A DNA stretch of 64,000 nt, taken from Haliotis asinina (Eukaryota; Mollusca; Gastropoda; Lepetellida; Haliotidae). Positions 27,711 to 64,000 of this stretch are shown one piece after another. Each line of letters begins with the position of its first letter. Within the stretch, counting starts at the first letter, position 1. Under the pieces are notes generated by a model that saw nothing but the letters and a program-made list of their open reading frames with translations, was not told the origin of the DNA and did no database searches. Where the stretch lies: assembly GCF_037392515.1 (NCBI RefSeq), contig NC_090288.1, positions 12,158,969 to 12,222,968 of the forward strand, written 5' to 3'. The position numbers and the translations under genes were made by a program.

Positions 27711-30700
27711 ATGCCGACGAAAGGTATGTGTATATGTAATGAGTCTTTTGTGTTATTTTCATTTCTATAAAAGCGAACTTTCTAATTTGACGGTATGTTT
27801 TCTGTACAAATGAGCAATGCAGTCTTTTTTCTGTATCCAGAAAATGAACTAAATCCACTGTTTCTGAATGCAAAGAAAATATGTCGAATCATTGCATTGT
27901 TGTGGAGATATTGTCGACAATGAACCTTCGGTGTGGCATAGAACTAAAGCTATTTGGAGCCATTAAAGAAATATATACTGAGGGGAAAAATTAAGGGTTC
28001 ACATGAAAACACAAGTGTTCTCTTATGTTTTCCCAAGGTTTCTTCACATACTGTACGATACAATGCCTGTGAAGAAACCTGGAAAAAAAAATAAAGGAAC
28101 ACTTTTGCTTTCATGCGATCCCTTATTATCTTCCCTCAGTATATTTGCAGATTTTCTCTTGTAAATATAGACTTCGTGGGGATAATGAAATCCTGTTTTT
28201 TGAGAAGGTTTATGTATGTCTGAAGAATACAACACAAAAACTCGAGAGAATATTCAGTGTCGATTATCTTCCGAAACAGATTTAATTAAGCCTAAAAGCC
28301 ATAATATTGGCACAAACTATGCGACTGGATCTTTGCAAGTAATGAGAATAAGCATGTGTTGCTTTCTTGCTGTACCGGTATCATCAAAGCTTACACAATG
28401 TGTCTTAAAATGTTCAAGAGAGTTTTGTGGGTTTTTTTCTTTTTTCTTCTTTTACTTTTTGGGGTGTGGTGTGGGGGTGTTGCCTTTCAAGAGCAAGAGC
28501 AATATAGCAATATTCCTGTCATACAGAACGGTGAAGATTGCTGTTGCTGACTGACGCAACTTCAGACTTGCATGACGCAACCTTTCATCTTTGTGCCAGA
28601 GAGGTTTCGTTTCTACGCGAAAGATATCCCCGAAGGAACAGACTGAATATCTGATACGGGACTGACCGAAAATTTCAGTTTGATCTCATCTGGTACACGA
28701 AGACAAAATCATAGACCAGGATGGATACGTGTTTGTGGCTACAGTCGAATTTGGCTTTTTGGTATTGTGTGTTAGGGATGTTGGAAAAACTAAAGACATT
28801 TTCAAAAATCAGATTTAGGTGCCATAGACCTAGTAATACTATTAATGTAGGAATAGTGAGTGAATGTTGTTTTGTGCCCTCTTAAGCAGTATCCCAACCA
28901 TTCCAGGGTAGAGGTCACTAATGTTCTACAAATGGCACATGTTGACATTGACTTCTTATCAGTTGCTTTCTCTCAAAGGTCTGCTTCAGCGTCTACAAGA
29001 CAAAGAGGATGTTGTTGTGGCGGAGGGATATGTGTTTGAATTTGAGAGAAGAGGCTTATTGAAAGCCGGAGCATTTGTACCGGAAGTGGTCATTGAAAGA
29101 CCGGATCTGGTGAAAGGTCTCCACGAAGAGTTTGTCAACGCCGGAAGTGACGTCTGTTTAGCTTTCACGGTAGGTAAATGATTTGCTTTTCACGATTGAG
29201 ATGTATCGTTAATCATGGCCGCCGATCGTTTATTCTTCATGCAGATCCTCTATCTACTACTATGGAGGTAGAAATACAAAAGCAGATGTTTAATTGCTAT
29301 TGTCCAACAGGAGACAAGTAATAACGTTTCCTCGTTCATACAGTACTATGGACACAGGGAGAAATTGAGAGTTATCGGCCGTGAAGGTGACCTTGAGAAG
29401 TTGAACAGAGATGCTTTGCGGATCGCGAAACAGGTGGCAGACGACACCGGGACGTTAATGGCGGGAAATCTCTCCAACACGACTGTGTACAGGAGGGATG
29501 ACAAGGACGCCATTGAGACTACGGAAGCCATGTTTAAAGTGAGTGCGCGAAAATTTCTTCCATTTCAAACGGTAGTAATTAACCTTACAACACTGAAGTC
29601 TTGCGAACATTGACAAATTAGGGTCCTTGAACAAGGTCTTCGTGATCACTTCTGTAAGTCCTCGAGATGGGTTTAGCTTTGGTTCGACCCGTAATACTAA
29701 CCAACTGTAAGACTTGTCAGCTGCAAACATCACAGCTCGGAACACCAGAAATAGGCATCACACATTGCACTGCACCCATGTGGGGAATCGAACCCGGGTG
29801 GTGTGGTCGGCTTAAAGAGCGAACACTTTAACCACAAGGCTACCCCACCGACCGACATTATTAGCACCATTCTGGGATTCAAGAGAATTTATATCTGAGA
29901 GACGAACTCTCTGACGTTTGGAGATACAAGAGTTATAACCCGTCACGGCATGTGACTTATTAAATTACATTATACTGCTAGATGTAAAATGCCACTTAAG
30001 ATATATATTGGGATGGTGGAAAGTGTGTATAATATTCTCTTCCACCAGGAACAAATCGAGTGGGCGGTGGAAGAAGGCGCCGACTACATTGTTGGAGAAA
30101 CATTCAGCGAACTCGGAGAGGCCATGCTTGCCCTCGAGTGTATTAACAAATATGGGAACGGTAAGATTACGCAGAATTTGGTGCTAATCAGATAAAATTC
30201 TGAATAATCACACTGCGTCACGAATATTCAGCAGACCTTAGGTAGTGAATCTGAAATAAAGAGTCTACTTCATTCCAGGACTACCAGCGGCCATTAGCTT
30301 TAATTGCCATACAGTGGACCAAACGTCAGACGGTTTGGCTTTGGGTGTCGCCTGCCGCAGACTGGAGGATGCTGGAGCGGCGGCAGTTGGATTAAACTGT
30401 GGGCGTGGACCCAGGACGATGCTGCCCCTCGTGAAGGAGGTCAGACAGGCTTGCAAGGTAACCCTGGCTTTAATAAATAAGTGTGTGAATGTGTGAGTTT
30501 CACGCCTCCACCAACTGTACTTCATTGATATCACGGTGAGCCAACTAAATATAGCTTGAGAAATGTAGCCAGTAACTTCTTTGGAGAAACCTTAGAGCAT
30601 GAGTATCATGCAAACCAAGAACTGGAATGACATCAGGCCGAATATGGAACTTGAGCCAAGGATCATATGATTCTGGCAGATCCAAGGTGAGGATCTCAGA

Positions 30701-31820
30701 TGAGGAAATGTACCACAACTGGATCTGACCGTTCGTGATCCTTGTTATATTGTGCAAAATGATAGCAAAGGGATGGTAACACTGGCCCACGTAAGACCGC
30801 ACTTCAGAGCCATGTTCGATACATGGATATACGCAATGTGTGCTTCATTTGTCAAGTTTTTATTCACATTTATATCCCTTTGCGGTTTATAGGGGCCAAT
30901 TATTGCATTGCCCGTGACGTACCGGACATGTCCAGATCATCCTACTTTCCAGTCGCTCAAAGAGCCACTGACCGGTACGTGATTTGAACACTCTGAATGT
31001 TTACAAACGGGTTTCCGGCCCGCGATTTGCATGCTCTGAATATTTTACAAATACCTTGCAGTACATTGTTGTGAATGTTTCGTGACTGTGGCTGTTGGGA
31101 CTGTTAGGTGAGTGAGTGAGTGGGTGAGTTTAGGTTTACGCCGCACTTAGCAATATTCCAGCTATATGGAGGCAGTCTGTAAATATTGAGCCTGGACCAG
31201 ACAATTCAGTGATCAACAACATGAGCATCGATCTGCGCAATTGGGAACTGATGACATGTGTCAACCAAGTCAGCGAGCCTGACCACCCGATCCTGTTAGT
31301 TGCCTCTTACGACAAGCATAGTCGCCTTTTATGGCAAGCATGGGTTGCTGAAGGCCTGTTCTACTCCGGGACCATCACGGGTCGAATTGTGAGGTTGTTA
31401 AAATAAACTTTAATAATATTTCATGAAATGAAATCGTCTTTTGCGAAAGATCCTCAATAAGTTTTGAAAAGTATGTACATGAAGCACAGAAATCCTGTGA
31501 ATATAACCCATAGGTGTTTCAATGTGTCTGTTGAAGGTGCCAGGGCGTTTCCGGTTGACCTTCCTGGGCAAACCTGTGGACGAACTGAAATTGCCAACTT
31601 TGCCCGAGAAGCCAAATCACTGGGCGTACAGTACGTGGGACTATGTTGTGGAAACGCTTCTCACTACATCCGAGTGGTGGCGGAGGAATACGGGCGTCGA
31701 CCTCCTGCCAGTAGATACTCCCCGGATATGTCCCAGCACTTTCTTTTTGGGAAGAACAAAAGCAGCGAGGACCCCTACCAGAAGGCGCTCAAGAAGAAAC
31801 TTGAAGGCATAACAGACTGA
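27711..31820 (+). CDS. BHMT: Betaine-homocysteine S-methyltransferase-like, gene 1 (type A), complete
   Basis: Exons 27711-27723, 28979-29169, 29344-29538, 30049-30160, 30279-30457, 30893-30974, 31537-31820; 351 aa; intron phases 1,0,0,1,0,1. Predicted cytosolic zinc enzyme moving a methyl group from betaine to homocysteine, giving methionine and dimethylglycine. Visible: N-terminal barrel start [15 protein letters not shown] (residues 16-30); VGETFSE with E150 matching the human homocysteine-binding Glu159; GLNCGRGP with C211; GLCCGN with C294-C295. These cysteines match zinc ligands 217, 299 and 300 of human BHMT. Human Asp26 and Trp44 align with E20 and F37. The C-terminus is about 55 residues shorter than human BHMT (406 aa) and lacks its dimerisation arm. 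The start MPTK-G is chosen because all five copies begin with MP..K at this splice junction. Intron 1 carries a MITE, intron 3 an S1 SINE, intron 6 an S2. Another homocysteine methyl donor cannot be excluded. Confidence 0.93.
27978..28139. mobile_element. Hairpin MITE, Tc1/mariner-like, TA-flanked
   Basis: An almost complete palindrome: left ctgagggg...gggttcacatgaaaaca...aggtttcttcaca, right tgtgaagaaacct...tgctttcatgcgatccc...ccctcag. TA lies at both ends (27976-27977, 28140-28141). The loop is tactgtacgatacaatgcc. It has no coding capacity and lies in intron 1 of BHMT gene 1 only. Confidence 0.75.
29729..29853 (-). repeat. S1 SINE, tail truncated
   Basis: Plus reading: acaccagaaataggcatcac, tgtggggaatcgaacccggg, cacaaggctaccccaccgac. 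It lies in intron 3 of BHMT gene 1 and is absent from the matching intron of gene 3. Confidence 0.85.
31109..31384 (-). repeat. S2 SINE, near full length
   Basis: (TGAG)n, then tttaggtttacgccgcactt ... gacaagcatagtcgcctttt ... gaccatcacgggtc. In intron 6 of BHMT gene 1; not present at this place in gene 3. Confidence 0.92.
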
Positions 31821-31829
31821 TGGAAGAGA

Positions 31830-34538: not shown

Positions 34539-37500
34539 ATGCCAGTCAAAGGTGACTTTGTCTTCACAGGAATGAATAATGTAGTCTGTTGTCTGGTGCA
34601 GTCATTCCATGGTATCTAATTACATGGTCTGTCTCACAGTCCCTGAACCATATTTTGAGCGAATATGTTCTCATTTGTCCAGCCCTGAATGGAACTAGTC
34701 TAAATCTTCCACCGCTCTGATCCGTTTGAATATATACGACTCAATTTGTTTGGTTGATTATCACAGACCAAGCGGTAGCATTTTAGTTTGTTTGTGTGTT
34801 GACTTTTTTTAACGCTGCATTCAGCAATATTGTGGCTAAATGGCGTCTGCGTGGACATAATCGGGTCACAAGCATCAACGCACTAGGGATATGTCTATTA
34901 ATATCGGGTCACGTGTCTGTGAGCTGAACCTTTGAGACTGCAGTTTTTACAAATATCTTTTTTGTTATTCGTTCTAATTAAACGTATTTACATGCACATG
35001 CCCCTGTCAAAAGTAGTCGTCGTTTGACCTCATTTCCATGCATGCTATTTCTGTGCAGCATAAATAATTTTCACTAAATGAGATCAGGATGGATCTTTGT
35101 CAAATTTGACAGGCAAATTTGAAATTATCTCTGCTCTGCGCACATTACTTCAGCTCAGGTTTCCAACCAATATTTAACTAATGACATACACTTATCAACT
35201 TATGTATGGTTCCACAATACACGATCCCATAGGCCGCCGTGTTAAAGGAGATCACGACACTGAACATATGTTGATTAAGTTGTCATTCCATAAATAAGCA
35301 AAGGACAATCAGACAGAAATTGTGATTGAAGGCAAGATAATTGCTCACATATATGCAAAATTTGACTTGGATCTTACGAAATTCAAATGCTAGAAAACTA
35401 TCTATGCTAAACAAAATTAACATGTAAGTCTATGGCAATGATGTCAACTGACGAATACTTTGCACGGTTCTGCACCTTCGTGTGTCTCCGTGACTTAACA
35501 GGAACCAATCTTTAATGTCACGGTGATGTTGTTACCTATGCAACTATCATTTATAATTTATTTTTCATTTTCAATCAACTTCTCTTTCAAAGGTCTGCTT
35601 CAGCGTCTACAAGACAAAGAGGATGTTATTGTGGCGGAGGGATATGTGTTTGAATTTGAGAGAAGAGGCTTGTTGAAAGCCGGAGCATTTGTACCGGAAG
35701 TGGTCATTGAAAGACCGGATCTGGTGAAAGGTCTCCACGAAGAGTTTGTCAATGCCGGAAGTGACGTTTGTTTGGCATTTACGGTAATATTCTGTATACA
35801 GCTCGAATCTAGTTAGTGTTGTCTTGCCTGAAACTGAATATCAGTAACTGATCCGATTCTGCTAGATCGAACACATATGGATAGGTTCCTGTTAAACTGT
35901 CATCATTTTAAATTACTTTCAACTAAAACATGAAACTATATGAGTGTTGTATATGCAAAAGCGTTATAATACTTTGAGCGAGCAAGATGGGTAATACGAC
36001 GCTTATACACATTTTTTTTATTCATTTTCAAATTTTGTTAAATATATTGACTAACGTTTACAACAAACATTTTTAACCCAGCGAATATATGACATCCGAA
36101 GTTCTAGACAAGCGAAGTGGGTATAATGCTGATACAGGTGGTATCGTGCATCGATGTCAACTGTATATGGATTTGATAAGTTTTATGCTTTGTACTAAAG
36201 GCTGATTTCTTGCCTTCTATTGGTACTTGTGAATGGTAAGTTTAAACACAAGACATGTAGTGTATAGGTCTCAGATGTTCCATATGTCGCTAGAGAGGCA
36301 GACTATGTCTCAAACATTTCATACCCCACAGGACGAAGACGTTCATTGGTCGATAGATCATGGTGCTCGTCTTGTACGAACCGTGTCCAGAAAGTTTAGA
36401 TCGTTGCTCATTCTTTCAACCACAAGATTGCCAGTATCCGACCTGATTATTTACAGGTTATTTCCGTAACTGCAACACAGGACAGCGAATAATTATCTAT
36501 TTCTTCATGAAAGTCTACTTGGATTTTTGGGAAGATACGCATCGTTATCGTTTGCAGTACTACGGTCACAGAGAGAAACTGAGAGTTATCGGCCGTGAAG
36601 GTGACCTTGAGAAGTTGAACAGAGACGCGTTGCGGATCGCGAGGAAGGTGGCAGACGACACCGGGACACTGATGGCGGGAAATCTCTCCAACACGACGTC
36701 GTACAGGAGGGATAACAAAGAAGCGATTGAGGCGACTGAAGCCATGTTTAAAGTGAGCGTTCTGATTTCTAAAAAATTCTTTACTGCAATTTGTGGGGTT
36801 TTTTTTATTCAGTGCAATGTAGTTGCGTCGATGAATAATGGTAATAATCGTGTCGTTACCATGCAATGTCATTTTGAAAAAATAATCGGTCATAGCATAT
36901 TTTTTAGCACTGTGTAAATGTAAACAAAAGATAGGGATCATTTAGTAATGATGATGATGATGATGATGACGAAGATGGTGATGATGATAATGATATAACG
37001 TTATATTTAAATATAACTGAAGTTGACGACATATTTCAGTAACATAGCTTTGAAAAAAGCGTTGAAATATGGTGAGTTGGTTTTTACGCTACCTTTAGCA
37101 ATATTCCAGCAATATCAAGGCGGGGGACACCAGAATTGGGCTTAACACATCGTACGCATGTGAGGAATCGAGGAGTCTTCGGTGTGACAAGCGACAGCTT
37201 TAACCACAAGGCTACCTAGTCGCCCCCTGCTGGAATACAAGGCCTGAATCAATTGCCGAAGTTACACATTGTGTCAAGTGACATCCGGATCTGTTTCGCA
37301 TATTGACCTCTCATATCCAGAAACCAAGATCAACCTTTGTTTAACGTCAAGCAAGGGTTTTTCGAGCGAGTTCCAATGGCATCTATCTGAAGAGTTTATT
37401 GACCTAATTACCCGCTTGCTGACTACTTTTGCATTTTAAATAATTTTCTGATTATACTATACATTACCAAAACTGATTTTACAGAGCTGTAATTTTCCAT

Positions 37501-40500
37501 TATTGTCATACATGATCATCATATTATGACATTTCTTCGGTATTCTCTATGAAGGCATATCTAAAAGTTTTAACGGACGTATTGCAACACTTATTCTGCT
37601 CCGTTTTTCATATGAGATACAACGGGAAAATAAGATGCATCTGATAGAGAGCAAAAATTTTGCGCTCAGTGCAAGACGATATTTACATCTTTAGATCCTC
37701 AGTCGTCGTGCGTGGAGTGTATCGTTAGGAAAAATAGGAAAATGGGAAAATAAGATTCATCTGAGAGAGAGCAAAAAAATGTTATGCTCAGTGCAAGACG
37801 ATATTTTCGTCTTTAGATGCCCACTTTAGATGTGGAGTGTATCGTTGCGATAAATGTTCCTCACTAACTCAACACGTTTTCAAAGCATATAAATGCGTCT
37901 GTTCCCATCGAGTGGCTAACTGGGCATGCAATGCTTCCACAGAACATGTCCATCCCATGTAAAAGAATCTCGCATTCAACGACCCGTATATTGACGGAAG
38001 AAGATGTCGAATAGCCCTACCTTTGGTGGAGAAGATTTTATGGACGCTTCGTTGGACTCGTAACCATGTGAGGGTCCAAGGACATTTTCATTGTGGTATC
38101 GCTCCCGCACTCCCGCGTCTTCGATCTAGTCCTGGGTTGCGATTGTGTTCGGCAGCATCAAGACCTGAGAACGATGCTACCATCGTCATGGGGCGAGCCA
38201 GGCTTTAACCAGTTAGTCAGAGCTGACTCCCGCGTCTTCCAAACTGGGTTCTTACCGCTTCACCGAATCACTCTCTTTGCAAATATGTTTCAGTGTTGAA
38301 AGTTGTTCATCCTTTAGCTTAAAGTTTATGTTCAAATTGCGCTTTGTGTAGTTAGCGAAGTTTCGCCATTTTCATGTATCATGTTTTACTACGCGCGATT
38401 TGATTGGTTTGCCACTTGGAAGTGATGGTGTACGAGAACGGTACGAGTCTTCTTGTAGGTCACGGAAAGAGACGAGTAGTTACTAATGACAGCGAGATCT
38501 GACCAACGGAAACCTGGAAATCGTGGAAATCTCAAAACGAGGCTCTGCCGCTAGAAAGGTTTAGCGGACTGGTACATAATTGAAATCAGTCTCACTGTAC
38601 GTGGCAGAACTACATTGAATATGCCTGGGTGTATCCACTGAGCCGGATGCATTGTGAATCATTTTACGACCTCATCAAACAGGGACAGTCTGTGAGGTCT
38701 TAGTTAAGGTCATGTTGCCTATACCTCGCCATAAGATATAAAAATACGATGCTATTAAAGTTTAAAATTAAAACTCAGTTCTAAATACCATATTCTTATG
38801 AAGCAAGGAATTGGGATTCAGTGTAACCAGAGTTGTTTGTGATGTCTATTTTCACTTTCGCACGAGAAGATTCGGATCGACTGAAAAGTAGGTCATTGTC
38901 TGAATTGGTTATTGACTCACGTTTCGGTTGGTCGCGGCTATGATTTTCATGTAAACAAAAATTGCGATAGCCACGCAATAAAATATACAAATTGCCAGAT
39001 TCTTTCTGAACATGAAACGCCCGTTTTGTTTCTCATTTATATTTACGATTAATTAATCTTATAATTAAGGACAGGTGCAGTTTGGGATTCCCTTGTTACG
39101 CCCATGTTACAGTGCATTTAAACTGTTGAAAGCGTCGTAAACTCTGTCACTAATTCTTTTCTCAGGAACAAATCGAGTGGGCGGTGGAAGAAAGTGCGGA
39201 CTACATTGTTGGGGAAACCTTCTGTGAGTTGGGGGAGGCCATGCTCGCTCTCGAATGTATGAAGAAATATGGAAATGGTGAGCATAAACAATCTCTCCTG
39301 AATTTGTTGGATAGTCATGTTTCATGTCGCGTTTGTGTGTGCGTGCGTATGTGCGCCTTCAGTCCGGCACTTCTGTTCAAGTGAGTGAGTGAGTTTTACG
39401 CCGCTTGTAGCAATATTCCAGCAATATCTCGGCTAGGGACTCTAGAAAATGGGCTTCAGACAATTTAGCCACTTTTGTTCAAGATATATCAGGTACATCT
39501 GTACATAATCCTGCCTAGACTATATAAACCAGTGACTGACATCATGAGCTTTGATGGACGTAACTGGAATAAGAGAACATGTGTTAGCCAAGTCAGCAAA
39601 CCTGATCATCCGATCCCGTTAGTCGCTTCTTACGACAAGCATTAGTTGTTGGATTCTAGCATGGATCGTGACGAGTCTTCAGGCTGAATTACGTTTTGAT
39701 TTCCATTCTTCAGGACTTCCTGCGGTGGTCAGTTTACTCGCCCTGGAAAAAGACGAAACATTAGAAGGTTTGGCGTTTGATGTCGCCTGCCGCAAGCTGG
39801 AAGAAGCAGGAGCGGCGGCAGTTGGATTAAACTGTGGCCGTGGTCCTAAGACGATGCTGCCTCTCCTTAAAGACATCAGACATACATGCAAGGTAGATGA
39901 ACCATAAGTGGGAATCCTAAAAGGTAAAATCGCTGAAACACGTAACAGCAATAAACGATGATGGTTATGACGACGACGACGACGACGATGATGATGATGA
40001 TGATGATTATCGCTTTAAGCGCCTGAATGGCTTCGGACAGTGAGTTTCAGATCGGAATGGGTCATAAGCTATCATTGCTGAAACAAGTAACAACTTGTCA
40101 ATAAAACAATAATAGTAATTATGTCAACACCTACGACGATAATAGCGTCGATGCTGTTGATGCTCTGATGATTGCTTTCATTGACAGGATGACGTCTGAC
40201 AGTGAGATTCAGATCTAAATGTTCTAAGAGATTTTTTATTGTTGTTGCCAGGGGCCTATCATGGCACTTCCGGTAACGTATCGCACCTGCGCAGAATATC
40301 CTTCGTTCCATTCCCTTCAAGATCCAGTTACAGGTAAAAGACACTCTTTTGACGAATATTTAGTGTGTATATGTCTGTTTGTCGTCCCTTACCACAAGCA
40401 GGATTTGGTGAAGACAAATTCCAACTCGGACCTTGTGTCCTGTGCATGAATTATGTTTGCTTGATTTGAAGCGTAGACCATTTGTTTCTTGAACCCCGTA

Positions 40501-41369
40501 TCTAATTTTCCTCTAAATTAATTTCAGATGATATGAAATTATAATGAGAAGTGTGTATCGCCAGCGGGATTCGAACCCAAGACCACCTGAGACGTCTTGT
40601 GCCGTTTCTCGAGCATTGCTAAAAGCGGCGGAAAACCATAATCACTCTTCCACGTCACTGTTGTCAATCTGTCATGGCAGTGACCAAAGCGCTGAAAGAA
40701 TCGGATTTTCGTTAACGTTTTGTGAGTGGTATATATTTAGGACAGTAATTCTTTCCAGGGGCGACATTGTTCCCGCTTCACCACTGGTAGTGAGTTTAAC
40801 GTTTAGTGAGTAAATGAGTTTGGTTCTGCGCCGCTTTCAGCAATAGTCCGGCAATATCACATTCGGGGACACCAGAAATGGGCCTCACGCATCGGACCTA
40901 TGTTGGGAATCGATCCCAGGTTTTCGACATAATGAGGAAACGCTTTAACCACTATGCTGCCCCACCGCCCCCTATAAGGTTTAGACCTTAACGCCTGCAA
41001 TTAACCTGAACGGTGATAAATTTTGACCACAATACAATAACCATGTAATATTAATTCCTCCAGTACTTAGCGTCAATATATCTTAGCGTCAATATATCTC
41101 TTTAAGGACAGAGGGCTTTCCCGGCTGACCTTCCTGGGCAAGCCTGTGGACGAAGTGAAATTGCCAACTTTGCCCGAGACGCCAAATCCCTGGGGGTGCA
41201 GTACGTGGGACTATGTTGTGGCAACGCTTCTCACTACATCCGGGTGGTGGCGGAGGTATACGGTCGTCGACCTCCCGCGAGTAGATACTCCCCCGATATG
41301 TCCCAACACTTTCTTTTCGGGAAGAACAAAAGCAGCGAGGACCCTTACGTAAAGAAGTTGTTAGTTTAA
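34539..41369 (+). CDS. BHMT: Betaine-homocysteine S-methyltransferase-like, gene 2 (type B), complete
   Basis: Exons 34539-34551, 35593-35783, 36558-36752, 39166-39277, 39714-39892, 40252-40333, 41107-41369 (TAA 41367-41369); 344 aa, no internal stop, same intron phases as gene 1. Zinc cysteines in GLNCGRGP and GLCCGN, and the Glu of VGETF, are present. Type-B marks: exon 5 reads [23 protein letters not shown] where type A reads [23 protein letters not shown], and the C-terminus ends [12 protein letters not shown] instead of [14 protein letters not shown]. It differs from the other copies at several sites usually kept ([34 protein letters not shown]), so it may be under weaker constraint. It is the longest gene of the array (6.8 kb), mainly through intron 3 (2.4 kb). 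Confidence 0.92.
34800..34905 (-). repeat. S2 SINE, degraded, in intron 1 of gene 2
   Basis: cgctgcattcagcaatattg ... aaatggcgtctgcg ... cataatcgggtcacaagcat. It sits after the same gaccaagcggta-like flank as the S2 remnants in intron 1 of genes 4 and 5, so it is probably one ancestral insertion. Confidence 0.55.
36945..36995. repeat. (GAT)n microsatellite
   Basis: gatgatgatgatgatgatga with a few changes; intron 3 of BHMT gene 2. Confidence 0.85.
37071..37226 (-). repeat. S1 SINE, near full length
   Basis: ggtgagttggtttttacgct, gcaatatcaaggcgggggac, then gaatcgaggagtcttcggtg (box B decayed) and cacaaggctacctagtcgcc. Intron 3 of BHMT gene 2. Confidence 0.85.
37623..37860. repeat. Direct tandem duplication, about 120-bp unit
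   Basis: gggaaaataagatgcatctg at 37,623 and gggaaaataagattcatctg at 37,743. Both continue through agagcaaaaa, ctcagtgcaagacgatattt and tggagtgtatcgtt. Intron 3 of BHMT gene 2. Confidence 0.8.
38515..38560. repeat. Short dispersed repeat shared with 48,125
   Basis: gaaatctcaaaacgaggc followed by ccgctagaaa occurs here and at 48,126-48,158. Family unknown. Confidence 0.4.
39381..39655 (-). repeat. S1 tail joined to S2 remnant in intron 4 of gene 2
   Basis: 39381-39467 is the 3' half of S1 (gtgagtgagtgagttttacg, caatatctcggctagggact). From about 39,488 the sequence is S2 (gcctagactatataaaccag ... cccgttagtcgcttcttacg). The S2 part is shared with intron 4 of genes 4 and 5. Confidence 0.65.
39964..40010. 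repeat. (GAC)n(GAT)n microsatellite
   Basis: gacgacgacgacgacgac then gatgatgatgatgatgat; intron 5 of BHMT gene 2. A related tract is present in intron 5 of gene 4. Confidence 0.85.
40806..40970 (-). repeat. S1 SINE, near full length
   Basis: gtgagtaaatgagtttggtt, gcaatatcacattcggggac, gggaatcgatcccaggtttt, accactatgctgccccaccg. Intron 6 of BHMT gene 2. Confidence 0.88.
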
Positions 41370-49173: not shown

Positions 49174-49176
<3 letters not shown>

Positions 49177-49244: not shown

Positions 49245-49248
<4 letters not shown>

Positions 49249-50316: not shown

Positions 50317-53300
50317 ATGCCCGCAGTGAAAGGTAGGTTTGTCTCCACAAGAACATCATGTTCTATATCCTGGTGATGATACACTCTGGTACAAACACTC
50401 CGGTGTATTTAATCACAAGATTTATCTCATAGTCCCCGAACTATATTTTCTCTTCTCCCCAGTCCCTTCCCTTCAAATAAGCCCTGAATGAAAATCTTCC
50501 ACCACAATGTCCCGTTTCAATACATAAGTAGTAATTTGTCTGTATAATTTTCATAGACCATGCGGTAATATATTTTGATTGTATGTTGGTTAATTCTGGA
50601 AATAATTCAAGTCGCGAGCATCTCCGCAAATTTGATACGATTACGTGCGTCAGCGAGCCTTACAACCCGCTGCCATGAGCCACCTCTAACAAAGGTTGCT
50701 GAAATGAAAACAAATTCTATCCCGGACCTTCACGGAGCGTTAGTCGTTTAAGAATTTGGATCTATTAATAGTAACCCACAGATTCTGGTGCCAGAACATT
50801 ATGCAGAAAAATGGATATCAGTAATTTTAACAAGACTAAATACATTCACATGTAGTTGTTTTGGAAATGCAACAAATGGAATTTGGGCTGACAGTCCATA
50901 TAAGTATCTATGCCCGTGAGGATCCGAAATTGATCGTCAGTAACCGATGCTTGTTGTCAGAAGAGACAGACGGGATCAGGTAGCCAGACTCTCTCATGTG
51001 GTTGATGCACGTCATCGTATCCCAACTGCGTAGATTGATGCTCATATTGTTGATCACTGGGTTGACTTTTCCAGATTCGATTATTAACAAATTGCTCCCA
51101 TACTGCTGGAATATAGCTGTGTGCGGCATAACACTAAGCACACTCATTTATGCATTCACATCTGGGGCACAAACATCTGTCAGTGATTCAGATGGTCTCG
51201 ACGTGAATATCATGGCCATTATATATGCGTTATCGCATGTCATTTGACACGTTTCATGGGTGAGGACATGCTGATGGGAATAAGTAAGGGGACCTATACT
51301 ACTTATGTATACAATACAAAGTAATTTCTCTATATTAGCGGAATATTAGCGTTCCGTCAACTTTTATCAGCATCCATTGATATAATTTCTACTAACTCTG
51401 CATACAGCGACGAAAACGACACCTCTGCACATCTGACTGCTGAATCAACAATTTCTCTTTCAAAGGTCTGCTTCAGCGTCTACAAGACAAAGAGGATGTT
51501 GTTGTGGCGGAGGGATATGTGTTTGAATTTGAAAGAAGAGGCTTGTTGAGAGCCGGTGCATTTGTACCGGAAGTGGTCATTGAAAGACCGGATCTGGTGA
51601 AAGGTCTCCACGAAGAGTTTGTCAATTCCGGAAGTGACGTTTGTTTGGCATTTACGGTAATATTCTGTATACAGTTCGAATCTGTTAGTGTTGCCTGCTT
51701 GACGTATCTGAAACTGAATAATGTTTGTTAATGATCTGATTCAGCCTATTTGAACCGTTCACACAAAGAAGTTAAACTCGTATACTTGCATTATTATAAT
51801 TAAACATTACATGCCATGTACACTATATGGTCTCAAATGTTCCATGTGTGTCACAAGAGAAGACGAATAGGTTAAAATATGTAGATATTATCACCCTCCT
51901 TACTCATATCTTGTCCGTATCTCTCCGAGACGTCCACATCTCACCGTTATTAGGGCGAGGTCCGATATCGGTCGAGGGATGATACGAGGCAAGATACTGA
52001 AAAGGGAAGGTCATAATATATTCTATCACCTAAGACTAACCGAGCAATAATCTATCATTTTTAAAAACCGTTAAAATCTCAAAAATATTTCACTCAAACA
52101 CTCCAAAAAAGACGCGACAAATCTATATTCAACATTAATTCAACAACTGTAGAATGCCATTTGCACACGTTGGTTCATCGCCGCTGTCGATTATCGGGCG
52201 TGGGATACGTTTGTGTCGTTTATCTTCATTAACAAGCGACAATAGAAACGATCACCTGCCATTTTTATTAACATTCGAAATTTCCATTAAATTTTACCGC
52301 AACGAAATCTGACGTAATTTTTACGACGTCAAGGGTCATTCTTTTGTGTTACGTTTCATGATGTCGCACACAAAAGTTAGGGGTCAGGTATCGGTTAGCT
52401 TCCCGCTCGAAGCAGGGATGATATGGGTTATCTTGCCGGGTTCAGATGTAGACCGAACGATTTCGCCAATATCGTTGAAGTAAAAAACGCATACACGGGG
52501 AATTTATTATCGTACTATTAAAATGGTAAACAGAAAAGCTAGAGAAGCAGAAATATGTATCCCATATTCCACTCAGCGAAGATGTTCATTTGTCGGTTGA
52601 TCACCTTGTTGGACTTGCATGAATCGAGTGCAGAAGTTTTAGATCGATTACCCGACTTGATTATTTACATTTTTATGTAACTGATGCACATAATGTTATA
52701 CTTATAAGGGCAGCGAAAATTTATCTACTTCTTCCAAAAAGTCTACTATTTCTATCGAATATTTTCTTCAAAGTTCACAACTTTTTACGTTTTACAGTAC
52801 TATGGCCACAGAGAAAAGCTCAGAGTTATTGGCCGTGAAGGTGACATTGAGAAGTTGAACAGGGATGCGTTGCGGATCGCCAAGCAGGTGGCAGACGACA
52901 CCGGGACGTTAATGGCGGGAAATCTTTGCAACACGACGGTGTACAGGAGGGATAACAAGGACGCCATTGAGACGACGGAAGCCATGTTTAAGGTGAGCGT
53001 TTGGACGTTCTTAAGCTGAACTCAGTCAAATTGTTATTTTATCTTTAGAGGGGCGGTGGTGTAGCCTAGTGGTTAAACCGTTCGCTCGTCACGCCGAAGA
53101 CCCGCGTTCGATTACCCACATGGGTACAATGTGTGAAGCCCATTTTCTGGTGTCCCCCACCGTGATATCGCTGGAATATTGCTGAAAGCGGAGTAAAACT
53201 AACCTCACTCACTCACTCACTATTTTATCTTTAGAAGGAAACACCGACAAAGTGAGTTTTTTCTAGCATACAGGGTGAGTGCGTGAGCTGACGAAGCTTC

Positions 53301-56027
53301 ATAGCAACATTCCAGCAATATCACGGCAGGGGACACCAGGAATGGGCTTAACACGGTGTACCCACATGGGAGTGAGTGAGTTTAGTTTTACGCCGCAATC
53401 AGCAATATTTCAACTATGTGGCGGCGGTCTGTAAATAATCGAGTGTGGACCAGACAATCCAGTGACCAACAACATGAGCATCGACCTGCGCAACTGGGAA
53501 CAGATGACATGTGCTAACCATGTCAGCGAGCCTGACCACCCGATCTCATTACTCGCCTCTTACGACAAGCATAGTCGCCTTTTATGGCAAGCATGGGTTG
53601 CTGAAGGACTGTTCTACTCCAGACCGTCACGAGTTGTACCACATGAGAATCGAACCCGAGACTTAATGGTTTAACCACAAGGCTACGCCGCCGCCGCTTA
53701 GCATACACGGACTGACTGAATCACACATGTACTGTGAAACTGTGCCATACTGCATGTAACAAGAGATTTTGTCACCACCCTTAAAGCATTAACAATGGTT
53801 ATATAAGTTAGTCGGAAAATCGACAAAGGACTGTTACACGAATGTTTAAATAATGCCGGCTAATTAATTACCAGATTCAGCTGTCATGTTTATAGAGGTG
53901 GCTTTCAATTGTAGTAGTATCCCTGATTTGTATATTCGTCACAACTCTGTTGAAGTGCATTTCAATACCAAAGCGTCGTAAACCGAACTCTGTCACCGAT
54001 TCTTTTCTCAGGAACAAATCGAGTGGGCGGTGGAGGGAGGTGCGGACTACATTGTTGGGGAAACCTTCAGCGAGTTGGGGGAGGCCATGCTCGCTCTTGA
54101 GTGTATTAACAAATATGGAAACGGTGAGGATGAATATGCTCAACATGGTATTTTATCAGAGTCAAGTGGACCAATCAGAACTCGACATTCTTGAGGCTAG
54201 ATAATCATGTTTCAGACTGATTGTGCGTGTGTTTGCGTGCGTCCCTTGTCCAGCGACGCGCCTATATTCCAGCCAAATGGCGGCGGTCTGTATATTCACT
54301 AGTCAGGACCAGTTAATCCAGCGATTCATGAGATAATCTATGCAGTTGGGATACGATGACGTGTATCAATTGGGATACGATGACGTGTATGTATCCAGTC
54401 AACCAGCCTGACCATCCCTGTAGTTGCCTCTTACCACAGTCATGGACTGATGGCAATCATGTCTAACATGGATCTCGAACATTGCATTTCAATTCTTCAG
54501 GACTACCTGCAGCGATCAGCTTTATCCCTTTGGAGAAAGACGAGACGGTAGATGGTTTGGCGTTTGGCGTCGCCTGCCGCAAGCTAGAGGAAGCAGGAGC
54601 GGCGGCAGTTGGATTAAACTGCGGGCGTGGTCCCAAGACGATGCTGCCTCTCCTCAGAGAGATCAGACAGGCTTGTAAGGTAGACCCTCATGAACCATAA
54701 GTGGCAATCCTAAAAGCTATCATAGTTGAACCACGTGACAACAATTACAATAAAAATAATGGCAGTGATATAGAGGACGACGACGATGATGATAATAGCT
54801 CAAACAACATATCAATGAAAATAACAATAATAGTAAAGATGTCGACACCAACGACGACGACGGCGATGATGATCATAATGAAGACGACTTTGACGATAAT
54901 GACTGATGATAAATATCTGATGATTGTCTGAAATGCCAGGGTGGCGTCGGACAGAGAGATTCAGGTCTGAATGTTTTAAGCGATTCTTTATTGTCTGTTA
55001 ACAGGGGCCTATCATTGCACTTCCGGTAACGTATCGTACGTGCACAGAACATCCTTCGTTCCTTTCGCTCCAAGATCCCGTTACAGGTAAAAGAAATTCT
55101 TTCTGACAAGTATTCAGTGTACATATTTGTCTGTCTTATTCTTTGTATGTTTGTCACCTCTTACGAAATTAATTTGAAATTATATGAAATTGTAATGGGA
55201 CTTTCGTATCTCATGTTTCCTGTCTGGATGTTACTTAACCCCGGTGCATATTCTTTATTATATTTAGCTTAATAACAAGAATGCTAAAACTGACGTAAGT
55301 ACGCTCCAGTGCAATGAACCCACAACGCTGACTCGTGGCCTTGAAACCAGTCGTTAACATTCGTTATGAACGAGTTTTTACACATAACATGTCATTGCTA
55401 ATTCAGATCACACTTGTAAATGCCCCTTGGATAAGAATAAAAGTTTCATTAAATAGTAGCCGGTTGAGGCAATGGATGTACCAGTACAGTACACTATATT
55501 TAGAGAGAAATATATTTCGTTGGTTCGGGAACGAACACTTTATAATAATCAATATTTACAGATATTTACTGAAATATAATGCTCCAAATATATTTTGAGA
55601 ATTTGTAAGTTAAAATGGTGGTTTTACAGCTTCAACTGATGAAATATTTTGTCTGATAATTTCTCCCCAATACAAAGTCGTACCTCGACGTAATAACAAA
55701 TATGAACCCTTAAGGTAGTTCATATATTTAATCTACCTGTGTGTGAATATATGTTTTTAAGGACAGAGGGCTTTCCCGGTTGACCTTCCTAGCCAAACGT
55801 GTGGACGAAGTGAAATTGCCGAATTTGCACGAGAAGCCAACTCCCTTGGCGTGCAGTACGTGGGACTATGTTGTGGCAACGCTTCTCACTACATCCGGGT
55901 GGTGGCGGAGGAATACGGGCGTCGACCTCCTGCCAGTAGATACTCCCCCAACATGTCCCAGCACTTTCTTTTCGGGAAGAACAAAAGCAGCGAGGACCCT
56001 TACGTTAAGAGGATGTTAATTAGATAA
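50317..56027 (+). CDS. BHMT: Betaine-homocysteine S-methyltransferase-like, gene 4 (type B), complete
   Basis: Exons 50317-50332, 51466-51656, 52798-52992, 54012-54123, 54501-54679, 55005-55086, 55762-56027 (TAA 56025-56027); 346 aa, open throughout. Exon 1 has one more codon than the other copies (MPAVK). Type-B exon 5 ([23 protein letters not shown]) and C-terminus ([11 protein letters not shown]). Zinc cysteines ([14 protein letters not shown]) and the Glu of VGETF are present. Private changes include [21 protein letters not shown] and EGGADY. Introns 1, 3 and 4 carry SINEs, some shared with gene 5. An AATAAA lies at 56112-56117, 85 bases after the stop, and the 3' flank aligns with that of gene 2 (aaatttatcaaagaat), supporting a short 3' UTR. 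Confidence 0.93.
50570..50740 (-). repeat. S2 remnant shared with intron 1 of gene 5
   Basis: gcgagcatctccgca ... gcgtcagcgagccttacaac ... cccggaccttcacgg. The following flank (gttagtcgtttaagaattt...ggatct) matches that after the S2 at 59,855 in gene 5. Confidence 0.6.
50915..51150 (+). repeat. S2 SINE shared with intron 1 of gene 5
   Basis: cccgtgaggatccgaaattg ... gatcaggtagccagactctc ... ggaatatagctgtgtgcggc, tail cacactcatttatgcattca. The downstream flank (tatcgcatgtca, tgacacgttt) is the same as after the S2 at 60,241. Confidence 0.8.
53050..53220 (+). repeat. S1 SINE, full length, 15-bp target duplication
   Basis: Reference S1 copy of 171 bp: gggcggtggtgtagcctagt, cgttcgattacccacatggg, ctggaatattgctgaaagcg, tail (CTCA)n. 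It is flanked by tattttatctttaga at 53035-53049 and 53221-53235. Absent from gene 5 intron 3. Confidence 0.96.
53275..53698 (-). repeat. S1 SINE split by an S2 insertion
   Basis: S1 parts 53275-53370 (gcaatatcacggcaggggac ... gtacccacatggg) and 53636-53698 (gtaccacatgagaatcgaac ... caaggctacgccgccgcc). The same S1 is uninterrupted in gene 5 at 62,208. Confidence 0.88.
53371..53635 (-). repeat. S2 SINE nested in S1
   Basis: agtgagtgagtttagtttta ... atgtggcggcggtctgtaaa ... ccgtcacgag. It is bordered by gtaccCacatg and gtaccacatg, an imperfect target duplication of the S1 box-B region. Confidence 0.9.
54248..54475 (-). repeat. S2 SINE remnant in intron 4 of gene 4
   Basis: atattccagccaaatggcgg, cactagtcaggaccagttaa, ctgaccatccctgtagttgc. 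A 24-bp direct repeat (tgggatacgatgacgtgtat twice) lies inside. Remnants at the same intron position occur in genes 2 and 5. Confidence 0.65.
54765..54915. repeat. Trinucleotide-rich tract (GAC/GAT/ATA)
   Basis: Imperfect gacgacgacgatgatgat and aacaataatag stretches in intron 5 of gene 4. The related tract in gene 2 is at 39,964. Confidence 0.7.
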
Positions 56028-59299: not shown

Positions 59300-62200
59300 A
59301 TGCCAGTGAAAGGTTAGTTCGTCTGCACATAAAATAACACTATGTTCTGTCTGGTGCAGTCATTCCGTTGTATTTACTCACATGATCTGTCTCGCGGTCC
59401 CTTAACTATATTTTCTCTTCAGTCCAGTCCTTTTCTGCAAGTGCGGAAGTCCAGAAACTAGTCTAAATCTCTCATCTCACTGGTTCGTTTCAATAAATGA
59501 GAAGTAATTTGTTTGCATATTTTCAAAGACCGTTAGTCTTTGAGTTTGTTTGGTTATACTCAGAATACACCATCGTGTCATTTACAAAAACGATAGCAAC
59601 AACATGATTTGGATAACTGTTACAGTAGCACTTATCTCTGGCAATATGGCAGATTGGTCGCATGTGACGTCACACACGGATAGGTCACGTGAAAACAAGC
59701 GGAATATGCTTGGTGGCAGAAACCCAGACAACAGATTCTGATAATGCGATTAAAAAATAAATAACCATAATTTTAAATAATAAATAAATGGTGTATAAGT
59801 GCCTGATTACTTATTTTTCACCCAGCAAATTATTACAATTTTTTAGTTTACACCTTTACCGTTGCGCTCAGCAATATTCCAGCTATATGGCGGCGGTCTG
59901 GAAATAATCGAACCACGAGCATCTACCCAACTGGGATACGAATACATGTGTCAACCTGCTTGAAAACCCAATCCCGCAAGTCGCCTCTTACGACAAGCAT
60001 AGGTTGCTGAAGGCCATTCTGACTCGGATCTTCCTAAATCGTTAGTCCTTTAAGTATTGGATTCCATTAAGAACAACCCACGCTCTGCTGCAAGAACAAT
60101 ATCCAGGAAAATGGTTGTCAGTAATTTTGACACTGATAAATGCATTCCACGAATATGATTTTAAAATGCGACATAAGAAGTTTTGGTTGACAGCTTGTTT
60201 TATGAAGCATTTCGTAATGCAGTGTGTGTTTAGTGCATTCAAACCCGTGAAGATCCAGGTTACAGCTGGTGTTCAGTAACCTATGCTTGTCGTTAGAGGC
60301 ATGATCGGGTGGCCAGGCTCGGGTTGTCATTGTATCTCTTTTTCGTAAATCGATGCCGATGCTGTTGATCGGTGGATTGTCTGGCCCTCGAATATTGACA
60401 GAGCGCCACAATACAAGCAGAATACTGCTGAGTGCGCTTACCTATACTCACTCATTCATGCATTCATATTTGAGGTCAATAACACTTGTCTAGGATTTAG
60501 ATAAGTAGGGCACTCGCCATGAGTACCAGCAGTCATTATATCTACGCTATCGCATGTCAGATGACACGTTTATAGGTGCAGATATACTGATGGTAATAAG
60601 TAAGGGAACATACAAATATATATATCGACTACTTAGGTCTACAATACTACTTACACAACAGTTGCTATATATTAGAGAAATATTAGCGCTCCTGATGGGT
60701 TTTTATCAGTATTTATTTTTATTATCATTTCTATCAACAATGATGAAACCGACACCACTGCACATCTGACTGCTGAATCAACAATTTCTCTTTCAAAGGT
60801 CTGCTTCAGCGTCTACAAGACAAAGAGGATGTTGTTGTGGCGGAGGGATATGTGTTTGAATTTGAGAGAAGAGGCTTGTTGAAAGCCGGTGCATTTGTAC
60901 CGGAAGTGGTCATTGAAAGACCGGATCTGGTGAAGGGTCTCCACGAAGAGTTTGTCAATGCCGGAAGTGACGTTTGTTTGGCATTTACGGTAAAATGCTG
61001 TATAGAGTTCGATTCTACTAGTGTGAACAATTCATATGTGAAACTGAATAATATTAATAAAAAAATGAAATAATCCGATTCAGGTGGATCGAACCATTGT
61101 CACAAAGACAATACTGATGCGTTTCTTATAGAATCCCAGCATTTTAATTTGCTTTCAACTGTTTCATCATCACTGTTTCAACAAACATGAAAGTGTGTAA
61201 ATTGTAAAATTGTTATGCAAAGGTGTTGTAATGCTTTGAGCAAAGGTTCATTTCTGCTATATTATTTCATTTTCAAACTATGAAATACCTTGACTAACGT
61301 TTACAGCGAAACATTTTTACCCAGCGAATATATGGCACCCGTAGTTCGAGACAAGTGAAGTGGGCATAATGTTGACAGGCAGTATGATGCATCGATGTCA
61401 ACTATATATGGATTTGACGAAGTTTTATGCTTTGCACTAACGACCATTTTCTTGCCACCTGTGTTGGGAATCATAAGTTTAAACACACGTCATGTACGGT
61501 ATAGGGGTATATGAGTGTTCCATGTGAGTGAGTAAGTACGATAGTGAGTGAGTTTAGTTTTACGCCGCACAAACGTTCCATGCGTCTTACAAGATACGCG
61601 GAATAGATATGAACTATCTACCCCCACACGTATCGCTAGAGAAGCAGAATAGGTCTCCAATATTCAATTTCCCACCGGGCGAAGGTATTGATTGATGGGT
61701 TCATCACATTGTTAAACTTGTACGAAACTTGTCCAGAAGGTTTAGCTCGTTGCTCATTTTTAACCCCACGTTTGCCAACCCCCATCCGGATTATTTGCGC
61801 ACCTACAGGAGATATTTTGAGGACATTGAGCAATTATCTTCTACTTTCAAAATTTCTATTAAAAAAAATCAAATCATTTTTTTTCAAAGTACATGTCTTT
61901 TTTTTTACAGTACTACGGTCACAGAGAAAAGCTGAGAGTTATCGGACGTGAAGGTGACCTTGAGAGGTTGAACAGGGACGCGTTACGGATCGCGAGGAAG
62001 GTAGCAGACGACACCGAGACGTTAATGGCGGGAAATCTCTCCAACACGACGGTGTACAGGAGGGATAACAAGGACGCCATTGAGACGACGGAAGCCATGT
62101 TTAAAGTGAGAATTTGGACATTCGGAAGCTAAATGAAATCAGTCAGTTGTTTCATCTTTCACACTGACATTTGATCAAGTTATATGGTTTCTTCCTGGCA

Positions 62201-64000
62201 TTCAGGGTGAATGAGTGCGTTTGGATTTACGCCGCTTTTTAACTATATTCCAGCAATATCACGGCGTGGGCACCAGAAACGGGTCGGCTCCACATCTTGT
62301 ACCCATGTGGGGAATCGAACCCGAGTCTTCGGCGTGACGAGCGAACGCTGAAACAGAATCACACAGCGAGTGTGTGGTATGTGGATTTGTGCCATATTGC
62401 ATGTAACAAGAGAGTTTGTCACTACTCATAATGCATTAACAGTAGTTATATTAGTCACTCGGAAAATTGGCCCTGGAGGGAAAATCGACAAAGGACTGTT
62501 ACATGAATGATAAATAATACCGGTTAATTAGTTGGCTTTCAACTGTAGTCTTATACCTTTGTATATTTCGTTTCATTTGTATAAGAGGCCTCTGAGACAA
62601 CGGAAGCCATGTTTAAAGTGAGGTCTTAGACATTCTCATTTCGCAAGAAAATTGGTACAATTTTTGTTACTTATACCATGCATGCGATGATGGTTATTCG
62701 ATGCTGGATAAATAAAAATAATAATATAGTCTATGATATGCAGTTATCATGAAATTCCATTTTACAACAACAACAAACGTTTAAGACATATTTTAAGCAT
62801 TAAGTAAATGAAGGTAGCAATCATGTGTTTATTTATCGGTTACCAGTTCGTATAATCGAATCTATGATATGATTAAGTTTCCTCTTTTACGTTTAACCTG
62901 AGACACCGGACGTATGTTGTCTTGTATATTCCAGCAATATTCCAGCAATATCACGACCAGAAATATTACATTGTAACCATCTGGGGATTCGACCCCGGGT
63001 CTTCGGCATGACGAGCGAACGCTTTAACCACTGGGTTACCCACCGTCTGACACATATGGGTCGTTTTAAAGTATAATTTAATGCTGAAATATATTAACAG
63101 CGTGTGTCCATGATTCATATGTTTCGTTTCCGGATTACGCGGGCATAATTTTTACACAAACCAAAATGGCGACGACCGTGCTATAAAATTTACAAAATGA
63201 CCCATTTTCTCCGAAACAAACACGATTTGTGCATAATTCTCAGTTATTTGATTCTCAAAGTATAACGACAGATAGAGTTTTGGATTCCTTTGTGACGTCT
63301 TCGCATCAACACAGTGAAGAGAATACTTTTCATAGCTTACACCCATAAATCCTGCTTTCCTTATGCGTTCCACTTCTAGGTACCCTTCAAAGATTTGCTC
63401 ACAGTGTCGTAAACCAAACTATTTCTTTTCTCAGGAACAAATCGAGTGGGCGGTGGAGGAAGGTGCGGACTACATTGTTGGGGAGTCCTTCAGCGAGTTG
63501 GGGGAGGCCATGCTCGCTCTTGAATGCATTAATAAATATGGAAACGGTGAGCGTGAAGAATGTGTTCTGAATGTGCTGAATACTCCAGTTTTAGACTAAT
63601 GATGTACGTCCGTGCCTCTCCAGTTTGTTTGTTGTTCATAACCTATGTGCAAGCAATATGAAGACAGTCTTTGTTTAATTGTGTCAATGCCATAAGTGAC
63701 TGAGATCATGAGAGCACTGACTACGAACATGTCTACCAAGTCAGCGAACCTGACCTCCCGATCCCGTTAGTCGCTTCTTACAAGCATGGGGTGCTGAAGA
63801 TGAGATCTAACATTCAGACGTGATTGATATTTTATTAACAATCAAGTCTTTGGACACTACATTTCTTTTCTTTAGGACTACCTGCAGCAATCAGTCTTAT
63901 CAGCCTGGAGAAAGACCAAACGTCAGACGGTTTGGCGTTTGACGTCGCCTGCCGCAAGGTGGAGGAAGCAGGAGCGGCGGCAGTTGGATTGAACTGTGGG
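59300..64000 (+). CDS. BHMT: Betaine-homocysteine S-methyltransferase-like, gene 5 (type B), cut by window edge
   Basis: Exons 59300-59312, 60799-60989, 61911-62105, 63435-63546 and 63876 to the window end within exon 5 (last residues [10 protein letters not shown]). The visible 206 residues are open, and the first zinc cysteine is present; the CC pair lies outside. Type B by promoter dyad, introns and exon 5 ([23 protein letters not shown]). Private changes: LERLNRD, DDTETLM, and GESFSE, where the homocysteine-site Glu is kept but the next Thr is Ser. Intron 3 contains a stray piece of exon 3 at 62,590-62,625. Introns 1 and 4 share S2 remnants with genes 2 and 4, and intron 3 shares an S1 with gene 4. 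Confidence 0.9.
59855..60045 (-). repeat. S2 SINE in intron 1 of gene 5
   Basis: ttgcgctcagcaatattcca, tatggcggcggtctggaaat, gtcgcctcttacgacaagca, gactcggatcttcc. The counterpart in gene 4 is the remnant at 50,570. Confidence 0.82.
60241..60460 (+). repeat. S2 SINE in intron 1 of gene 5, shared with gene 4
   Basis: cccgtgaagatccaggttac ... ggtggccaggctcgggttgt ... gaatactgctgagtgcgctt, tail tactcactcattcatgcatt. Confidence 0.8.
62208..62352 (-). repeat. S1 SINE, uninterrupted counterpart of 53,275
   Basis: gaatgagtgcgtttggattt, gcaatatcacggcgtgggca, cttgtacccatgtggggaat, cgaacccgagtcttcggcgt. It is followed by tcacac...atattgcatgtaacaagag, as after the S1 in gene 4. This is the pre-insertion state of the S1 that carries an S2 in gene 4. 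Confidence 0.88.
62590..62625 (+). pseudogene. Stray duplicate of the end of BHMT exon 3 with its donor
   Basis: gagacaacggaagccatg then tttaaagtgag repeats the last 24 or so coding bases of exon 3 and its donor. The next bases (tcttagacattc) resemble the start of intron 3 (aatttggacattc). No exon 3 sequence precedes it, so it is a non-functional relic in intron 3 of gene 5. Confidence 0.85.
62928..63050 (-). repeat. S1 SINE fragment
   Basis: ttccagcaatattccagcaa, ggggattcgaccccgggtct, ggcatgacgagcgaacgctt, accactgggttacccaccg. Intron 3 of gene 5. Confidence 0.88.
63640..63820 (-). repeat. S2 SINE remnant in intron 4 of gene 5
   Basis: gtgactgagatcatgag, taccaagtcagcgaacctga, cccgttagtcgcttcttaca. 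It sits at the same place relative to exon 5 as the remnants in genes 2 and 4. Confidence 0.65.

What the first reader, a model, noticed from the sequence alone, without database searches (positions are those of the whole stretch)
27711..64000. Five-gene tandem BHMT-like array in A-B-A-B-B order
Seen: five head-to-tail genes with identical exon lengths (apart from exon 1 of gene 4 and the 3' exon) and intron phases; four are complete and open. Types A and B alternate, which suggests that an A-B pair was duplicated as a block and that B was then copied once more. Known: vertebrates carry one or two BHMT-family genes. Inference: dosage or tissue specialisation for betaine (osmolyte) catabolism in a marine mollusc. 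The array may continue past 64,000.
Basis: partly seen in the sequence, partly recalled or inferred. Interest (0 to 1): 0.75.

Follow-up and report, generated by a model that had tools for sequence, protein, structure and literature searches.

The report
Six-gene tandem BHMT-like methyltransferase array
A chromosome, probably of a sea snail, carries six intact head-to-tail copies of a methionine-making enzyme gene that resembles bacterial betaine-using enzymes more than our own; the array is real but is mostly an ordinary gene-family expansion.

Summary
The window has five head-to-tail genes with identical internal exons (191/195/112/179/82 nt), all GT-AG. Types A and B are supported by introns and exon 5. 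The array continues: gene 5 ends at 65,694, and a sixth, A-like but separate gene lies at 77,009-85,673, giving A-B-A-B-B-A'. All six are open (exon 1 of gene 6 not found) and under purifying selection (dN/dS 0.09-0.22). dS of 0.22-0.52 argues against haplotype duplicates. Three searches found the same 16 such genes in the genome (6 on C9, 10 on C6).

The comparison with vertebrate BHMT needs correcting. The array proteins are 53-56% identical to their best bacterial relative and 33-35% to rat BHMT. They keep the three zinc cysteines and the homocysteine glutamate. They lack the GDGG motif, part of the betaine loop, two of three recalled betaine-cage residues and most of the oligomerisation tail. 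No vertebrate-type BHMT was found. A few bacterial relatives sit under B12 or SAM riboswitches, or beside glycine-betaine or sulfur-amino-acid genes. I infer a B12-independent homocysteine methyltransferase, probably using betaine.

A-B block duplication is possible but not shown; the B genes may be mosaics. Interest is moderate: a new member of a known kind.

The parts
27711..31820 (+). Gene 1, type A, 351 aa: exons 27711-27723, 28979-29169, 29344-29538, 30049-30160, 30279-30457, 30893-30974, 31537-31820
   Evidence: Spliced model, GT-AG, open; PF02574 E 1.4e-38
34539..41369 (+). Gene 2, type B, 344 aa: exons 34539-34551, 35593-35783, 36558-36752, 39166-39277, 39714-39892, 40252-40333, 41107-41369
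43531..47339 (+). Gene 3, type A, 351 aa: exons 43531-43543, 44356-44546, 45177-45371, 45818-45929, 46056-46234, 46631-46712, 47056-47339
50317..56027 (+). Gene 4, type B, 346 aa, exon 1 one codon longer: exons 50317-50332, 51466-51656, 52798-52992, 54012-54123, 54501-54679, 55005-55086, 55762-56027
59300..64000 (+). Gene 5, type B, 342 aa, runs to 65694 beyond the window: exons 59300-59312, 60799-60989, 61911-62105, 63435-63546, 63876-64054, then 64214-64295 and 65438-65694 outside. A sixth gene (A-like) follows at 77009-85673.
   Evidence: flanks fetched from the window's own genome

Best explanation
The array is a tandem expansion of genes for a bacterial-type (AEG-motif) betaine-homocysteine methyltransferase, a zinc-dependent (beta/alpha)8-barrel enzyme. 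It moves a methyl group from a small methylated donor, most likely glycine betaine (perhaps DMSP or other onium compounds), directly to homocysteine, giving methionine (and, from betaine, dimethylglycine) without cobalamin or folate. The copies arose by tandem duplication, probably from an A-like ancestor (gene 6 is placed outside the other five). They split into A and B types, and the B genes have probably exchanged sequence since. All six are kept by purifying selection. Shown: copy number in this assembly, gene structure, selection, conserved zinc and homocysteine residues, family membership. Inferred: activity, donor and physiological role.
For: Six open gene models. dN/dS 0.09-0.22 in 15 of 15 pairs over five exons. 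PF02574 matched in 11 of 11 members scanned, out of 16 genes. The positions aligned to rat C299, C300 and E159 are conserved in 16 of 16 genes of this genome and C217 in 15 of 16 (the 16th, c6f, has a frameshift in that exon and is a gap there); all four in 80 of 80 bacterial relatives. A model of a bacterial relative has pLDDT 91.4 and its best 14 PDB matches are BHMT chains, TMq 0.75-0.86. Context in the 80 bacterial loci: cobalamin riboswitch in 5 of 80, all upstream and on the same strand, four of them in one clade; SAM-V in 1 of 80, with 57 nt between it and the start codon. gbcA-gbcB-like genes just upstream in L080 and L086. DAO/sarcosine-oxidase-like genes in 13 of 80, gbcA-like in 4, fdhA-like in 3, metY-like in 3. 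The SAM-V-controlled bhmT of Pelagibacter is assigned to methionine synthesis from betaine in PMC5069961 and PMC3160333, passages seen. The oyster gene called BHMT has primers that translate to motifs of this type. Three PF16350 matches (a domain of dimethylglycine and sarcosine dehydrogenases, recalled) lie on C12.
Against: Two of three betaine-cage positions (recalled) differ: W44 to F and Y160 to T or S. Four of the nine residues at 86-94, a stretch reported as needed for activity with betaine, have no counterpart (PMC4516251, passages). The gbcAB and riboswitch contexts are a small minority of loci, and most of the 80 loci show none of the neighbours I counted. gbcA and gbcB score below NCBIfam's cut-offs. 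If they do oxidise betaine's methyl group, their neighbour could serve a different donor. There is no expression or enzyme evidence for these genes.
Confidence: 0.72

Rival explanations
1. The copies have split in methyl-donor use: some use betaine, others DMSP, S-methylmethionine or another algal onium compound.
For: Exon 5 has the highest dN of the five exons in 12 of 15 pairs (dN 0.05-0.22). Betaine-cage and loop residues differ from vertebrate BHMT. A marine bacterial Bmt uses both DMSP and betaine in vitro (PMC12366255, passages).
Against: The residues at the mapped active-site positions are the same in all six genes except T or S at 160. Overall selection is purifying. The exon-5 changes were not mapped onto a structure.
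Confidence: 0.2
2. The copies are redundant: a dosage expansion or near-neutral birth and death, with no difference in function.
For: Proteins of genes 2-6 are 85-92% identical to gene 1. Exon 2 looks homogenised among B genes.
Against: All six are intact although dS is 0.22-0.52, and the A and B 3' ends and most introns are distinct.
Confidence: 0.3
3. Some copies are assembly artefacts (uncollapsed haplotypes).
For: Tandem paralogues are prone to this. On C6 one near-identical pair (c6e/c6f, dS 0.013 without exon 5) could be such a case.
Against: Array pairs differ by dS 0.22-0.52 and most intron sequence is not alignable between types.
Confidence: 0.03

Closest known systems
Bacterial AEG-type BhmT (for example the L129 Pelagibacteraceae gene under SAM-V; gbcAB-linked copies L080 and L086)
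   Same: Array genes are 53-56% identical to their best match among 80 bacterial relatives; AEG motif; zinc cysteines; similar length
   Different: Nuclear genes with six introns, six tandem copies, 16 in the genome; no operon, and no riboswitch was looked for in the array
Vertebrate BHMT and BHMT2 (tandem pair in mammals, PMC4516251)
   Same: Homocysteine S-methyltransferase barrel, zinc site, tandem paralogues
   Different: 33-35% identity; GDGG, W44, Y160, residues 89-92 and most of the 319-406 tail not shared; six versus two tandem genes
Oyster 'BHMT' (Crassostrea hongkongensis, PMC11702833)
   Same: Its qPCR primers translate to VLAFTYC and MIEWAV, close to this family's VLAFTYY and QIEWAV
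   Different: Only primer letters and passages were seen; copy number and array unknown
Roseobacter Bmt (Phaeobacter inhibens, PMC12366255)
   Same: Direct methyl transfer from betaine or DMSP to homocysteine in vitro
   Different: Sequence not compared here; whether it is AEG-type is unknown

Membership tests
Homocysteine S-methyltransferase superfamily (PF02574) | Profile match over the curated cut-off | tested here: met
   11 of 11 members given (all six array genes, 5 of 10 C6 genes) match at E up to 0.001; gene 1 E 1.4e-38, 133.9 bits against cut-off 22
Homocysteine S-methyltransferase superfamily (PF02574) | Three zinc-ligand cysteines (217, 299, 300; roles recalled) | tested here: met
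   6 of 6 array genes
AEG-type bacterial BhmT branch | A-E-G in place of G-D-G-G; identity above that to vertebrate BHMT; grouping in a tree | tested here: met
   AEG in 16 of 16 genes of this genome; E at that position in 75 of 80 bacteria; identity 53-56% versus 33-35% for the array; tree. The 80 bacteria are the best-scoring kept rows of 439 confirmed, so they were chosen by similarity to this family
Vertebrate BHMT/BHMT2 | GDGG motif at 25-28 | tested here: not met
   the exact pairing of D26 depends on the alignment (D26 to E with one Gly lost, D26 to A)
Vertebrate BHMT/BHMT2 | Betaine-recognition stretch 86-94 | tested here: not met
   Residues 89-92 have no counterpart; role from PMC4516251 passage, which cites unpublished data. 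Some fish BHMT have seven of the nine
Vertebrate BHMT/BHMT2 | Betaine-cage residues W44, Y77, Y160 (recalled) | tested here: not met
   W44 to F 6/6, Y77 kept 6/6, Y160 to T 4/6 or S 2/6 in the array
Vertebrate BHMT/BHMT2 | Oligomerisation region 319-406 | tested here: not met
   Array proteins are 342-351 aa and end about 30-40 residues after the barrel; range from PMC4516251 passage
AEG-type bacterial BhmT branch | Methyl transfer from betaine to homocysteine | not testable with these tools
   Needs an enzyme assay

The most novel reading that the evidence does not exclude
An ancestor of this animal took up a bacterial AEG-type BhmT. It stands in for the vertebrate-type BHMT, which was not found here. 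It then grew to 16 copies, including the six-gene array, whose A and B types divide the dietary methyl donors (betaine, DMSP and other algal compounds) into a B12-independent methionine supply.
Probability: 0.12. Interest if true: 0.68.

Novelty: new member of a known kind. Interest (0 to 1): 0.4.

Why it matters
It suggests that a gene annotated 'BHMT' in some invertebrates may not be the vertebrate enzyme, so substrate and B12-independence should not be carried over without testing. The array with distinct A and B types gives a ready set of natural variants for testing donor choice. It also adds a case to the known link between methyl-osmolyte use and methionine supply in marine life.

Tried and rejected
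Tried and led nowhere or rejected. (1) A-B block duplication: intergenic DNA between genes 1-2 and 3-4 shows no match beyond dispersed repeats and the stretch round exon 1; the 800 bases after genes 1 and 3 do not match, those after genes 2 and 4 do in part; possible but not shown. (2) Vertebrate-type BHMT elsewhere in the genome: the rat query gave 33 matches, all at places of the 16 genes. The PF02574 hits on C8 look like methionine synthase and those on C4 like another homocysteine methyltransferase (my reading, not tested further). (3) Haplotype artefact for the array: rejected on dS. (4) Horizontal transfer: the 16 genes are one clade (100/99) among bacteria with a very long branch to rat, but no other eukaryotes could be added, so direction and time cannot be told. 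(5) Gene 6 exon 1 was not found by pattern. (6) Roles of residues 26, 44, 77, 159, 160, 217, 299 and 300 are recalled; one paper sought was not held, one look-up failed and one search found nothing. (7) Is 80 matches a display limit? A bacterial query with a looser E-value listed 84, all at the same 16 genes, four of them at the place of exon 6; so no 17th gene is hinted at. (8) Ten paper searches were answered. The listings of the five on molluscs, oysters or Haliotis show no title that reports this array; the library lacks most subscription journals.
Full report
Observation. The region holds five head-to-tail genes on the + strand. Full splice models give exon lengths 13 (16 in gene 4), 191, 195, 112, 179 and 82 nt and a type-specific 3' exon, with GT-AG at all modelled introns and no internal stop. 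The window lies at C9:12158969-12222968 of a 1.143-Gb genome in 159 contigs. I fetched 39 kb to the left and 160 kb to the right. Gene 5 ends at 65694, and a sixth gene has exons 2-7 at 77009-85673; no more copies were seen there (one 5-kb N run at 218001-223000). The order is therefore A-B-A-B-B-A'. Exon 1 of gene 6 was not found.

Types and history. Introns 4 and 5 align only inside {g1,g3} and, where they align at all, inside {g2,g4,g5}. Gene 6 introns align with neither, apart from short stretches of intron 2 with B genes. Introns 3 and 6 show some partial matches between A and B genes (for example g1/g2 intron 3, 23% of the shorter), perhaps dispersed repeats. A CDS tree of the six with three C6 genes gives B as one branch (97/99), g1+g3 at 89/99 and g6 outside these at 73/75. 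Holding g1+g3+g6 together is not rejected (p-AU 0.079), nor is g2+g4+g5+g6 (p-AU 0.207). In the protein tree the other five are set apart from g6 at 99/81. Single-exon trees are poorly resolved: g1+g3 appear together in exons 2, 3 and 4, 1+3+6 in exon 5, and exon 7 shows neither type as a group. Gene 6 shares the A-type exon 5 and 284-nt 3' exon, so A may be the older form. Inside B the order is unsettled: the DNA tree joins g4+g5 (69/69), the protein tree g2+g5 (100/81). Introns 1 and 3 are most shared by g4/g5, introns 2, 4 and 6 by g2/g5, and intron 5 is mixed. Exon 2 shows 1 of 28 variable fourfold sites in B genes against 29 of 92 in the other four exons (permutation p 0.0017, chosen after seeing the data). 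Together this points to exchange or conversion among copies. A-B block duplication is not visible in intergenic DNA.

Selection and artefact. dN/dS is 0.09-0.22 and dS 0.22-0.52 in 15 of 15 pairs over five exons (exons 1 and 6 and the variable 3' end not counted). This is far from haplotype-level divergence, so false duplication is unlikely, though read depth could not be checked.

Genome-wide family. Three protein queries find the same 16 genes, 6 on C9 and 10 on C6. Two of them list 80 matches (five exons of each gene), and a bacterial query with a looser E-value lists 84, four of them at the place of exon 6. The tool calls such counts lower bounds. A rat BHMT query gave 33 matches, all at places of these 16 genes, so no vertebrate-type BHMT was found. 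One C6 gene (c6f) has a frameshift in exon 5 and is nearly identical to c6e, about 211 kb away.

What kind of protein. All 11 members scanned (of 16 genes) match PF02574; the nearest solved structures are human and rat BHMT. Array proteins are 53-56% identical to their best bacterial relative and 33-35% to rat BHMT; C6 genes are 45-57% and 32-38%. In a 97-row tree the 16 genes form one clade (100/99) among bacteria, with rat on a very long branch, though a profile of the family still matches rat at 253 bits over most of the barrel. The bacteria were picked by similarity and no other eukaryote was available, so this does not show transfer. Zinc cysteines and E159 are conserved. D26 aligns with E (alignment-dependent), W44 with F (W in 2 of 10 C6 genes; F or Y in bacteria), Y160 with T or S, and residues 89-92 are absent. 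Y77 is kept in 16 of 16 here but is N in 19 of 80 bacteria. PMC4516251 (passages) says that deleting residues 86-94 abolishes activity with betaine and that 319-406 serve oligomerisation; the array proteins lack most of the latter. A model of bacterial L075 (pLDDT 91.4) matches BHMT chains best (TMq 0.75-0.86). The array proteins themselves were not folded.

Function from context. Over all 80 bacterial loci a cobalamin riboswitch occurs in 5 (L077, L080, L086, L087, L130), always upstream on the same strand; four of these are in one clade. In L080 and L086 it is followed by gbcA, gbcB and then the bhmT-like gene (gbcA and gbcB are the best matches but score below NCBIfam cut-offs). In L129 (Pelagibacteraceae) a SAM-V riboswitch ends 57 nt before the start codon, and an O-acetylhomoserine sulfhydrylase follows. 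Counts of neighbours: DAO/sarcosine-oxidase-like 13 (10 on the same strand), gbcA-like 4, gbcB 2, fdhA-like 3, metY-like 3, of 80 (an earlier looser clustering put 18 loci in the DAO group). Most loci show none of these within about 2.7 kb a side. PMC5069961 (passages) reports that Pelagibacter bhmT is under validated SAM riboswitches and rises when DMSP is limiting; PMC3160333 (passages) places it first in a predicted betaine pathway. Both say the gene is rare in bacteria; the 80 loci kept here, from several phyla, suggest that this branch is commoner than that. PMC12366255 (passages) shows direct use of DMSP and betaine by a marine bacterial Bmt, whose sequence I did not compare.

Animals. 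The oyster gene called BHMT in PMC11702833 (passages) has primers reading VLAFTYC and MIEWAV, close to the motifs of this branch. At DNA level the forward primer fits the array genes no better than shuffles of gene 1. That paper discusses its expression with salinity. In a coral, two BHMT homologues of unknown type rise under low salinity (PMC5557254, passages). The window genome has three PF16350 matches on C12, a domain of dimethylglycine and sarcosine dehydrogenases (recalled), which were not resolved further.

Verdict. The finding is real and slightly larger than described. The enzyme is best described as a bacterial-type betaine-homocysteine methyltransferase relative. It probably works like BHMT, but it is not a member of the vertebrate BHMT/BHMT2 branch. 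The donor is inferred.

Noticed in passing
G000 C6:25.243-25.247 Mb and 25.4545-25.458 Mb (L065-L074): Two nearly identical BHMT-like genes about 211 kb apart (dS 0.013 without exon 5), one with a frameshift in exon 5: a recent duplicate or an uncollapsed haplotype.
   Followed up: partly
G000 C6:2.905-3.114 Mb (c6a-c6d): Four BHMT-like genes, two on each strand, whose exon 5 encodes the same 60 residues in all four while other exons differ, suggesting local homogenisation.
   Followed up: partly
Window 35589-35783, 51462-51656 and 60795-60989 (exon 2 of B genes): Exon 2 is nearly free of change at fourfold sites among B genes (1 of 28) against 29 of 92 in the other exons.
   Followed up: partly
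Window 20021-63790, e.g. 22016-22286, 31113-31383, 53366-53636: A dispersed repeat of about 270 bases is scattered through introns and spacers of the array; not identified.
   Followed up: no
L077, L080, L086, L087, L130: Bacterial AEG-type bhmT genes downstream of cobalamin riboswitches, in two cases after gbcA-gbcB-like genes: a possible B12-replaceable methionine route joined to betaine breakdown.
   Followed up: partly
L129:1510-1575: SAM-V riboswitch 57 nt before a bhmT-like gene in a Pelagibacteraceae genome, as already known for Pelagibacter bhmT.
   Followed up: yes
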